A program made the translations under genes and the position numbers. From Liolophura sinensis (lineage: Eukaryota > Mollusca > Polyplacophora > Chitonida > Chitonidae), in NCBI RefSeq assembly GCF_032854445.1, contig NC_088300.1:77303966-77367965 (forward strand): DNA of 64,000 nt. Direction: 5' to 3'. The notes beneath the pieces were generated by a model. That model was not told the origin of the DNA. It saw only the letters and a list, made by a program, of their open reading frames with translations, and ran no database searches. Shown piece after piece: positions 48,480 to 51,400 of this stretch. The number at the start of each line of letters is the position of its first letter. The first letter of the stretch is position 1.

Positions 48480-51400
48480 GTGAGTCATTTGGACGTGGTA
48501 GGTAAAGCAATTATATAAATATAGCTTTTTGGTTTTATATATGACTTCAGTCAGGTGCATGTATAACTTGCCAAAGGTAAGCAGTAACAGGATGTGTTTA
48601 TGCACAAACTGTAACAGAACAGCATTTATGTGTTAAATGTGATCATATAGCTCAGTATGTTCATGTGTTTCCATCTGTTTGCATCGCTGAATATCCATGC
48701 ACTTCACAACATTTGTTATGTTTGTGCTGATGAAGGTTACAGAATGATAAGTCACAACAGGCTGAGAAAATGGACTACATTGTCCATGAGAGGGACACAT
48801 ATCTAAAGCAGCTACAGGCCAGCAGAAGTAAACAACAGGCTGATGATCTATATCTCCCCCAGATAAAAGAGGTAAGATTTGAGACCTCTGTGAAGGTGTG
48901 GTCACTTGGAATCAGTAATATAATGTGAGAGCAGATGAGAGGCGCTGTAAGAACATTAAGCACAAATTACAGGACTCCAGTTCATTTTTTGGCCTGATGT
49001 GTATTTACTCGTCTGTGTCAAACAACTGTAAATCTTCAACTTTTCAACCTCTAAAGCACTTTTTCAGTTGAATTTATGCAGTTATTATGAAGAAGACACC
49101 AGAATGATTTGTTTGTGTCACTAAAAATATGTAAGCTTCATAAAGCCATGCAAATTATTTCTCTACACCAATAGTTCTCTCAGAATGTTTCAAAATATTG
49201 GTCGCAGTGGTGGTTGAAAAGGTTGAAGAATTAGGGTAACATGAGTAAAGTGGATGAGGAAAATAGGTTGGCGTCTTATTTAAAATCTTTGCAACAGCAT
49301 GAAAATGCTGTGCTACAGTTTCTGTATTTAGTGCACATGCACCCTCCCCCATGCACATGAACCTCTGGTACATCATGAAAAATCTTAGCAAATATGCCTT
49401 GACTGGCAATATAATCTTGCAGCTTGTGGGTTTAATTAACCAACCATATGTTTTGGGACTTAGATTACAATGGTATTGGTCATTTTGTCACATGGAATTC
49501 TGCTGTGGTCAGAGGTTGAAGAGGTTGAACAAGACATGCATTTGTTACCCTACCTCTGTGCTGCCACCTATACAAGTGTGCATGTCACAAAGCATTTACT
49601 ATCACCAGAATGAATGGAAAGGTGTGGAAGTGATTACAGGCTTTCATTTGACCGGAAAATCAACTAAACCATGCTCAAGATGTACTTCGTTATTTTTAGT
49701 CCTGCATGCTTTATAACTGCCTCTGTTTATAATAGTTGCAAAGGCTGCCGATTTGCATATGTGTTTTAAATGCATTTTTTATCTGAAAGTGTCTCCTATT
49801 TTGTATTTTCCATATGTGCACTTTATTATAGCTGGAATACACAATATCACAACAGCAGAATGAAATCCGTGGTCTGAAGGATAAAATCTGCTCCCATGAT
49901 ACAGCTGCCAAGCGAGCTGTTATGTCGCTACAGAACGAGTTAAAGCTCCGAGTTGATCAGGTAAGTAGAAATGTGTGCTGATGGGATGATAAGGAACTGC
50001 AGCACGGCTCAGATTGATTCTCGGACCATTCAGGTTTTATTTTACCAGCATGTTGTAACATTTAACTATTTTTGTTTTTCCCTTTGATTAGAACAATTAT
50101 AATTTGTATTGTATGTCATAGTTGTCGTAGTTCGGTAAAAAAGTTGAATTTTCTTATGTGAGGAACAGGTGTAAGAAAAAACGTAAAAGATCTGAATTTT
50201 CTACATCATTGTGTTCGAACTGCAGTTTTGAAGTGTTTGTAGGTGACAAAGATGTATGAAGACTGTCGTAAAGAGAAGGACTCCATGGTGATCAAATATG
50301 CACAGGCAGAGCACAAGAACATTGACCTTCAGAGGGCCACAGAAAAAGCTGAAGGTCGACTGAAGGAAATCTTAAGAGAGAGGGAGGTGTTTTTAACAAA
50401 AGCTCGACAGCTAAAAGCTGACTACCAGAGAACGTGTAGTGAACTTCAGACAAAGGTACGATATTGAGTGGATAACATGTTAGGGAGGCACTCTGAGATG
50501 TGTAAGTGTCATTTGCATAAATGAGTGTCATAGGCATGAAGTGTAAAGAGTGTGTGGTATCAGCAGTATCTGCCAGGATACCTGTCTTCTCCTAGTTTAT
50601 ACATAGGACCATGACAACAAATATATCATATCTATTTTGTGAACATTATCCTGCACTGTACATTGGTTTCCTGATCAATCTTATTCAGCCTCGTCAAAAC
50701 CTCCTTCAGGCTAAAATCATGTTGACACTTGTGTGTTATTTCCAGACAACTGAGTTTTCATCTGTATCCAAAGAACTGGAGAAACACAAGGAGTTGATTG
50801 CATCTGCAGAAGTTCGTATCAAATGGGCTCAGAATAAGATGAAGGCTGAACTGGAGGCACACAAGGTGAGTGTAGTTACTTCTGAACTGGAGGCACACAA
50901 GGTGAGTGTAGTTACTTCTGAACTGGAGGCACACAAGGTGAGTGTAGTTACTTCTGAACTGGAGGCACACAAGGTGAGTGTAGTTACTTCTGAACTGGAG
51001 GCACACAAGGTGAGTGTAGTTGCTTCTGAACTGGAGGCACACAAGGTGAGTGTAGTTGCTTCTGAACTGGAGGCACACAAGGTGAGTGTAGTTGCTTCTG
51101 AACTGGAGGCACACAAGGTGAGTGTAGTTTGCTTCTGAACTGGAGGCACACAAGGTGAGTGTAGTTGCTTCTGAACTGGAGGCACACAAGGTGAGTGTAG
51201 TTACTTCTGAACTGGAGGCACATAAGGTGAGTGTAGTTACTTCTGGAAGGGATTCCCAGGGGTGGAGAGGATCACAGGCTGGACATTTCACGCTTGATTA
51301 TTTCAAATGTCTTGAGGTGCTTCAGACGAAGTTTTAATATCTTTTGGAACATATTGTAATCTGTGAATGACATTTTGTGAAGAAACTTTAGTTGTATATA

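What the first reader, a model, noticed from the sequence alone, without database searches (positions are those of the whole stretch)
50848..51245. A minisatellite whose unit is an exon end plus a splice donor, repeated 11 times
The 36-bp unit joins the last 18 coding bases of CCDC186 exon 5 to the first 18 bases of its intron, so AAG/GTGAGT is present 11 times. The unit is 12 codons and contains no stop, so donors 1-8 would give isoforms that differ by 12-residue blocks ([12 protein letters not shown]). Twelve is not a multiple of seven, so each block would shift the coiled-coil register. Donors 9-11 follow an extra T and would lead to a stop. This could give length variation at the RNA level and between individuals.
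Basis: partly seen in the sequence, partly recalled or inferred. Interest (0 to 1): 0.88.

Follow-up and report, generated by a model that had tools for sequence, protein, structure and literature searches.

The report
Repeat array over a splice donor
In a marine mollusc (a chiton), a 36-base stretch that covers the end of one exon and the start of its intron has been copied 11 times in a row; similar arrays sit at exon ends elsewhere in this genome, resemble the 'mirage' repeats known from amphioxus, and are probably mostly spliced out rather than made into protein.

Summary
In detail: 11 tandem copies (ten of 36 bp, one of 37) at 50848-51244, each with 18 coding bases ending in AAG and then intron bases starting GTGAGT. 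Donors 1-8 are in frame, 9-11 lead to a stop. The assembly matches the published Liolophura chiton genome; one search found the array at one place. It is not unique. Two more arrays in the same gene start at predicted exon ends (52787, 60273). Genome-wide, a perfect donor word sits in short-period arrays 1.8-3.2 times more often than the same word reversed. At nine loci Pfam matches an exon that ends at or beside such an array; in seven of the nine no downstream donor is usable in frame before a stop. This anatomy equals the 'mirage' minisatellites of amphioxus, for which regular splicing was reported. Best reading: a boundary-spanning minisatellite born by tandem duplication, mostly intronic, with donor 1 as the main donor. 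The isoform ladder stays possible, because this array is one of the few that keep frame, but nothing here shows it; no RNA could be examined. The Pfam contrast with control arrays is only suggestive (p about 0.08).

The parts
50746..50865 (+). exon 5 of the CCDC186-like gene up to donor 1
   Evidence: preceded by ttatttccag, phase 0, joins open to exons 4 and 6
50848..51244 (+). 36-bp boundary-spanning minisatellite, 11 copies, each with AAG|GTGAGT
51100..51136 (+). copy 8, 37 bp, extra T that breaks the exon frame for donors 9-11
51563..51667 (+). exon 6 (acceptor ttccaag|GAAACC)
52693..52791 (+). predicted exon 7, donor GAG|GTAATC; its end starts the 86-bp array
   Evidence: open coiled-coil-like ORF and acceptor candidates; boundaries assigned by hand
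52787..53824 (+). second donor-anchored array (86-bp unit to 53483, then related shorter units); starts 4 nt before the predicted exon end
60124..60273 (+). predicted exon 15, donor AAG|GTAAGC
   Evidence: boundaries assigned by hand
60273..60932 (+). third donor-anchored array (114-bp unit), starts at the predicted exon 15 donor

Best explanation
This is a minisatellite that arose by tandem duplication across the 5' splice site of exon 5, as the 'mirage' arrays of amphioxus do. Shown: the array's anatomy, its donors, two more arrays at predicted donors in the same gene, and conserved exon ends under or beside similar arrays elsewhere in this genome. Inferred: the first duplication joined two CTG trinucleotides that flank the unit (microhomology), and unequal exchange or slippage then expanded it. 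Because each copy carries a complete exon end and donor, any copy number leaves an intact donor 1 after the normal exon, so the change is nearly invisible in mRNA. Donor 1 (50865) is the main site and the array is mostly removed with the intron; occasional use of donors 2-8 would add 12-residue blocks, and use of donors 9-11 would give transcripts with an early stop.
For: Array and frame. CTG at both edges (...AAGGCTGAAC and ...ACTTCTGGAAG). Three of six arrays after exon 1 start -19, -4 and 0 nt from a predicted donor; rough binomial P 5.5e-4 under uniform placement. Donor word AGGTRAGT three times at short spacing: 1602 matches, against 849 for the reversed word and 818, 1272, 835 and 818 for four other rearranged words; single-word counts are 51157 against 48053 reversed. 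AAGGTGAGT: 106 against 35 reversed, single words 6095 against 6514. Distinct arrays, clustered by eye: 16 on C1 up to 6.95 Mb against 5, 6 and 4 for three control words; 26 from 100 of 106 matches against 12 from all 35. Pfam matches (E<=0.01) in 9 of 39 donor arrays against 2 of 27 control arrays. Downstream GTRAG donors unusable in 7 of the 9. Published RT-PCR in amphioxus (passages).
Against: No RNA was examined. The focal array keeps frame for seven further donors, unlike most of the nine. The Pfam contrast is not significant (Fisher p 0.087 at E<=0.01; 0.083 for 7 of 39 against 1 of 27 over the curated cut-offs). One control word, AGTRGATG, reaches 1272 triple matches, and its single-word count was not taken, so part of the donor excess may be ordinary word variation. 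Control arrays are not free of donors: L031 lies about 60 nt past an exon end and L034 overlaps an 81-bp AAGGTGAGT array. In human boundary repeats, transcripts that retain the repeat are common (PMC2812944, passages). Exons 7 and 15 are hand-made predictions.
Confidence: 0.72

Rival explanations
1. The array is a working set of alternative donors: several of donors 1-8 are used, giving coiled-coil isoforms that differ by 12-residue blocks, with length varying between individuals.
For: All eleven donors have the same strong sequence; donors 1-8 are in frame and open. The 114-bp array at predicted exon 15 also keeps the exon frame open for 636 nt, with 9 of 11 GTRAG donors before the stop in phase. 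In human boundary repeats, alternative transcripts that retain the repeat are reported for 66% of intron modifications (PMC2812944, passages). PMC3087553 itself notes that the repeated signals could act as cryptic sites.
Against: A 36-bp unit stays in frame by chance about 19% of the time; copy 8 has a frameshift; 7 of 9 Pfam-supported arrays in other genes cannot be extended in frame; amphioxus globin and Adh cases are reported to splice regularly (passages).
Confidence: 0.16
2. A downstream donor is used constitutively, so copies up to 8 are simply coding repeat sequence in this species.
For: The exon frame stays open through donor 8. The first long exon of the same gene has an in-frame 33-bp coding minisatellite (46337-46622).
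Against: The insert would be a long VSVVTS-bearing repeat inside a coiled coil, and copies 9-11 are out of frame. No relative was available for comparison.
Confidence: 0.06
3. It is an ordinary minisatellite that happens to overlap a donor, with no tendency of arrays to form at splice sites in this genome. (This is a rival to the genome-wide part only and can hold together with use of donor 1.)
For: Minisatellites are dense here: 26 merged arrays, 8.7 kb of the 64-kb window. The Pfam contrast is not significant, and one control word comes near the donor word (1272 against 1602).
Against: Three arrays of this gene start at predicted donors. Donor words are over-represented in arrays compared with their reverse at nearly equal background frequency.
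Confidence: 0.2
4. Assembly error: the copy number, or the array itself, is an artefact.
For: HiFi coverage is only 14x (PMC11068029, passages).
Against: The array is about 400 bp, far below the reported mean HiFi read length of 8,347 bp, and copies differ by variants. Arrays of the same anatomy occur at other loci.
Confidence: 0.02

Closest known systems
'Mirage' minisatellites of amphioxus: Adh3 and globins BflGb6 and BflGb9 (PMC3087553, passages), TnC and the similar PGBD5 repeats (PMC3902484, passage)
   Same: Tandem repeats of minisatellite size whose unit spans an exon-intron boundary, with AG/GT signals in many copies; regular splicing reported there.
   Different: Different phylum (mollusc, not cephalochordate); all 11 copies keep a perfect donor and seven further donors stay in frame; RNA, haplotype and somatic variation not tested here.
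Internal tandem repeats at exon-intron boundaries in human segmental duplications (PMC2812944, passages)
   Same: Minisatellite units, about 30 bp on average, that change exon-intron structure.
   Different: Those are in recent primate paralogs, and alternative transcripts are documented there.
Intron gain by tandem duplication (PMC4974935 and PMC2891723 seen only in search listings; the AG/GT duplication model as cited in PMC3087553)
   Same: Duplication of a segment that carries splice signals.
   Different: Here an existing donor is multiplied; no new intron is shown.
Intronic minisatellite of abalone TSSK1-like (PMC6905558, passages)
   Same: A 27-bp minisatellite in a mollusc intron, variable between individuals.
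   Different: The passages seen do not say that it touches a splice site.

Membership tests
mirage (boundary-spanning minisatellite) | tandem repeat of minisatellite size | tested here: met
   36-bp unit, 11 copies
mirage (boundary-spanning minisatellite) | repeat unit spans an exon-intron boundary | tested here: met
   18 exonic and 18 intronic bases per copy (19 in copy 8); exon 5 joins open to exons 4 and 6. The boundary is predicted from sequence, not from RNA.
mirage (boundary-spanning minisatellite) | splice signal repeated in the copies | tested here: met
   AAG|GTGAGT in 11 of 11 copies
mirage (boundary-spanning minisatellite) | regular splicing not disturbed | not testable with these tools
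   no RNA data held
mirage (boundary-spanning minisatellite) | length instability between haplotypes or cells | not testable with these tools
   one match in a purged assembly (PMC11068029)
mirage as named in cephalochordates | occurs in a cephalochordate | tested here: not met
   scaffold number and longest scaffold equal those of the Liolophura chiton assembly and the total differs by about 31 kb; mitochondrial gene order, read by eye from ORFs, agrees with the molluscan order as I recall it. So: same kind of structure, not filed as an amphioxus mirage by descent.

The most novel reading that the evidence does not exclude
Splice donors of this chiton genome are preferred birthplaces of minisatellites, and in the CCDC186-like gene such an array has become a digital splice ladder: up to eight in-frame donors (and a second in-frame array at exon 15) yield coiled-coil isoforms whose length varies in 12-residue steps within and between individuals.
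Probability: 0.12. Interest if true: 0.85.

Novelty: new member of a known kind. Interest (0 to 1): 0.45.

Why it matters
If donor-anchored minisatellites are common in a mollusc, the phenomenon described in amphioxus is either convergent or wider than thought, and gives a natural series of one to many identical competing 5' splice sites in real genes. How the spliceosome picks among equal tandem donors could then be read from existing RNA-seq, and such arrays would supply raw material for intron sliding and intron gain.

Tried and rejected
Amphioxus as the source: considered when the mirage papers appeared, then rejected. The Pfam GFP family gave no match (weak, since its control genomes did not ring either). 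The assembly statistics and the mitochondrial gene order point to the chiton Liolophura, renamed L. sinensis in PMC12441733 (whole text).

Full gene model: attempted. Exons 4-6 join cleanly in one frame; my concatenation of 15 exons held 39 stops, so other boundaries are unsettled. The last exon was not recognised in the 6 kb after the window, so whether the arrays at 61128, 61596 and 62609 lie inside the gene is assumed, not shown.

Pfam on window ORFs gave no family that names the gene. Pfam contrast between donor and control arrays: in the predicted direction, not significant. Two of 39 donor loci were not scanned (L006 too short, L045 no ORF by the rule) and count as misses. The control hit in L067 is a below-cut-off match to the repeat itself. 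My first ORF rule missed the exon beside L021; a second rule was then applied to every set, that is, after seeing the miss. The C1 interval for array counts ends where the donor listing was cut off, at a donor array. Reversed control words are not donor-free: when TGAGTGGAA follows GG it reads GGTGAGT (for example L062, L067). Single-word counts were taken only for the two donor words and their reverses.

Acceptor-like word TTTTCAGG: 275 triple matches against 100 reversed, not normalised. Earthworm metallothionein minisatellites (PMC12783039, passages): no boundary-spanning unit stated in what I saw. Paper searches listed no mollusc report of boundary-spanning arrays (20 of 56 papers shown; the others listed in full); that library and those terms only. 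The original Adh paper was not held.

Full report
OBSERVATION. The array is real and the coordinates are right. Copies run 50848-51244; ten are 36 bp and copy 8 is 37 bp. Apart from the extra T in copy 8, each reads GAACTGGAGGCACA(C/T)AAG|GTGAGTGTAGTT(A/G)CTTCT, so the donor is intact 11 of 11 times. Donors 1-8 join in frame to exon 6 (51563-51667); donors 9-11 give a TGA stop because of the extra T. One DNA search of the assembly gave one match.

ORGANISM. G000 has 609,464,459 bases in 632 contigs and contig C1 is 96,433,062 bases. The Liolophura chiton assembly in PMC11068029 (passages) has 609,495,693 bases, 632 scaffolds and a longest scaffold of 96,433,062; a correction renames the species L. 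sinensis (PMC12441733). The gene order of the mitochondrial contig, which I read by eye from its ORFs, agrees with the molluscan order as I recall it. The assembly is from 14x HiFi reads with haplotypic duplicates purged, so allelic copy numbers cannot be seen.

NOT ALONE IN THE GENE. Exon 5 joins open in phase 0 to exons 4 and 6. Two further arrays begin at predicted exon ends: an 86-bp array at 52787, 4 nt before the end of predicted exon 7 (GAG|GTAATC), and a 114-bp array at 60273, at the donor of predicted exon 15. Of six arrays after exon 1, these three start within 25 nt upstream to 5 nt downstream of a donor; under uniform placement P is about 5.5e-4. That figure is rough: exons were predicted by hand with a recalled donor consensus, the full 15-exon chain does not close (39 stops), the last three arrays are only assumed to lie in the gene, and the window was chosen for its array. 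The gene name CCDC186 is recalled, not tested.

GENOME-WIDE. Pattern searches asked for a word three times with gaps of 10-40 bases. AGGTRAGT: 1602 matches; reversed TGARTGGA 849; GTAGRTGA 818 and AGTRGATG 1272; GATGRGTA 835 and ATGRGTAG 818. Single-word counts are similar, 51157 for AGGTRAGT against 48053 reversed, a 1.8-fold excess per word. AAGGTGAGT: 106 against 35 reversed, single words 6095 against 6514, a 3.2-fold excess. Clustering the printed places by eye, C1 up to 6.95 Mb holds 16 donor arrays against 5, 6 and 4 for three control words (binomial p 0.0013; the interval ends where the donor listing stopped); for the 9-base word, 26 arrays from 100 of the 106 matches against 12 from all 35 (p 0.017).

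ARE THEY ON REAL EXONS? I fetched 39 donor arrays (16 from the first set; 23 of the 26 of the second; of the other three, two were already in the first set and one is the focal array) and 27 control arrays. The longest ORF overlapping the 60 nt upstream of the TRF start, on the word's strand, was scanned with Pfam (37 of 39 donor loci, 27 of 27 controls). At E<=0.01, 9 of 39 donor arrays match: L007 ankyrin, L011 Branch, L013 SNF2, L014 HEAT (below cut-off), L020 Fe_hyd_lg_C, L038 7tm_1, L046 TARSH_C, L049 sideroflexin (just below cut-off), L051 sulfotransferase. Controls: 2 of 27, L031 (UQ_con, array edge about 60 nt past the donor) and L067 (weak match to the repeat itself). Fisher p is 0.087, or 0.083 for matches over cut-off, 7 of 39 against 1 of 27: suggestive only. 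Control L034 overlaps an 81-bp AAGGTGAGT array, so the controls are not wholly donor-free. In 7 of the nine the TRF start lies inside the exon, for example 23 nt before the donor in L007, 21 in L013, 12 in L014 and 35 in L020; in L011 and L038 it lies after the first donor.

HOW IT WORKS. For those nine exons I read the exon frame into the array within the fetched 2 kb. In seven of nine no downstream GTRAG donor is both ahead of the first stop and a multiple of three away; L011 has two and L014 has one. The focal array has seven of seven, the exon 15 array nine of eleven, the exon 7 array none. So the class as a whole can hardly work by adding protein blocks; the simplest reading is that donor 1 is used and the array leaves with the intron. 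Amphioxus arrays of the same anatomy were reported not to interfere with regular splicing, with the caveat that the repeated signals could act as cryptic sites (PMC3087553, passages; PMC3902484, passage). Against this reading, human boundary repeats often show transcripts that retain the repeat (PMC2812944, passages). The focal array's frame is expected by chance in about 19% of 36-bp units. CTG stands at both outer edges, consistent with birth by microhomology; this is inference. Which donor is used here was not tested.

KNOWN OR NEW. The kind is known: 'mirages' in amphioxus, and boundary repeats in human segmental duplications. What is added is occurrence in a mollusc, several cases in one gene, and a measured excess of a donor word in arrays over its reverse. 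The searches listed no mollusc report of boundary-spanning arrays; one listed paper describes an abalone intron minisatellite that varies between individuals, with no splice-site overlap stated in the passages seen (PMC6905558). Interest rests mainly on the genome-wide pattern and on the fact that the isoform ladder is directly testable with RNA data that the assembly paper lists.

Noticed in passing
window 52787-53483: Copies of the 86-bp array after the first carry CCTTCCCCCAG followed by AGAG|GTAA (mostly GTAAG), an acceptor-like tract just before a donor, which resembles a recursive splice site.
   Followed up: no
window 60273-60932: The 114-bp array has GTRAG donors at alternating 48/66 spacing and keeps the exon 15 frame open for 636 nt.
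   Followed up: partly
window 46337-46622: In-frame 33-bp coding minisatellite (SPEGNVEAV-like repeats) within the long first exon.
   Followed up: no
window 62609-63982 and L037: A 58-bp array reaches the window end; related repeat ORFs recur through the next 6 kb.
   Followed up: partly
G000 contig C99: Seven COX1 matches about 15.5 kb apart suggest a contig of tandem mitochondrial genome copies.
   Followed up: no
L013 and L014 (C1:4179298-4181298 and C1:4191514-4193514): Two donor-anchored arrays lie about 12 kb apart on the same strand, perhaps in one gene (BTAF1-like, name recalled).
   Followed up: no
genome-wide: An acceptor-like word (TTTTCAGG) is also more frequent in arrays than its reverse, 275 against 100, not normalised, so 3' splice sites may be affected too.
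   Followed up: partly
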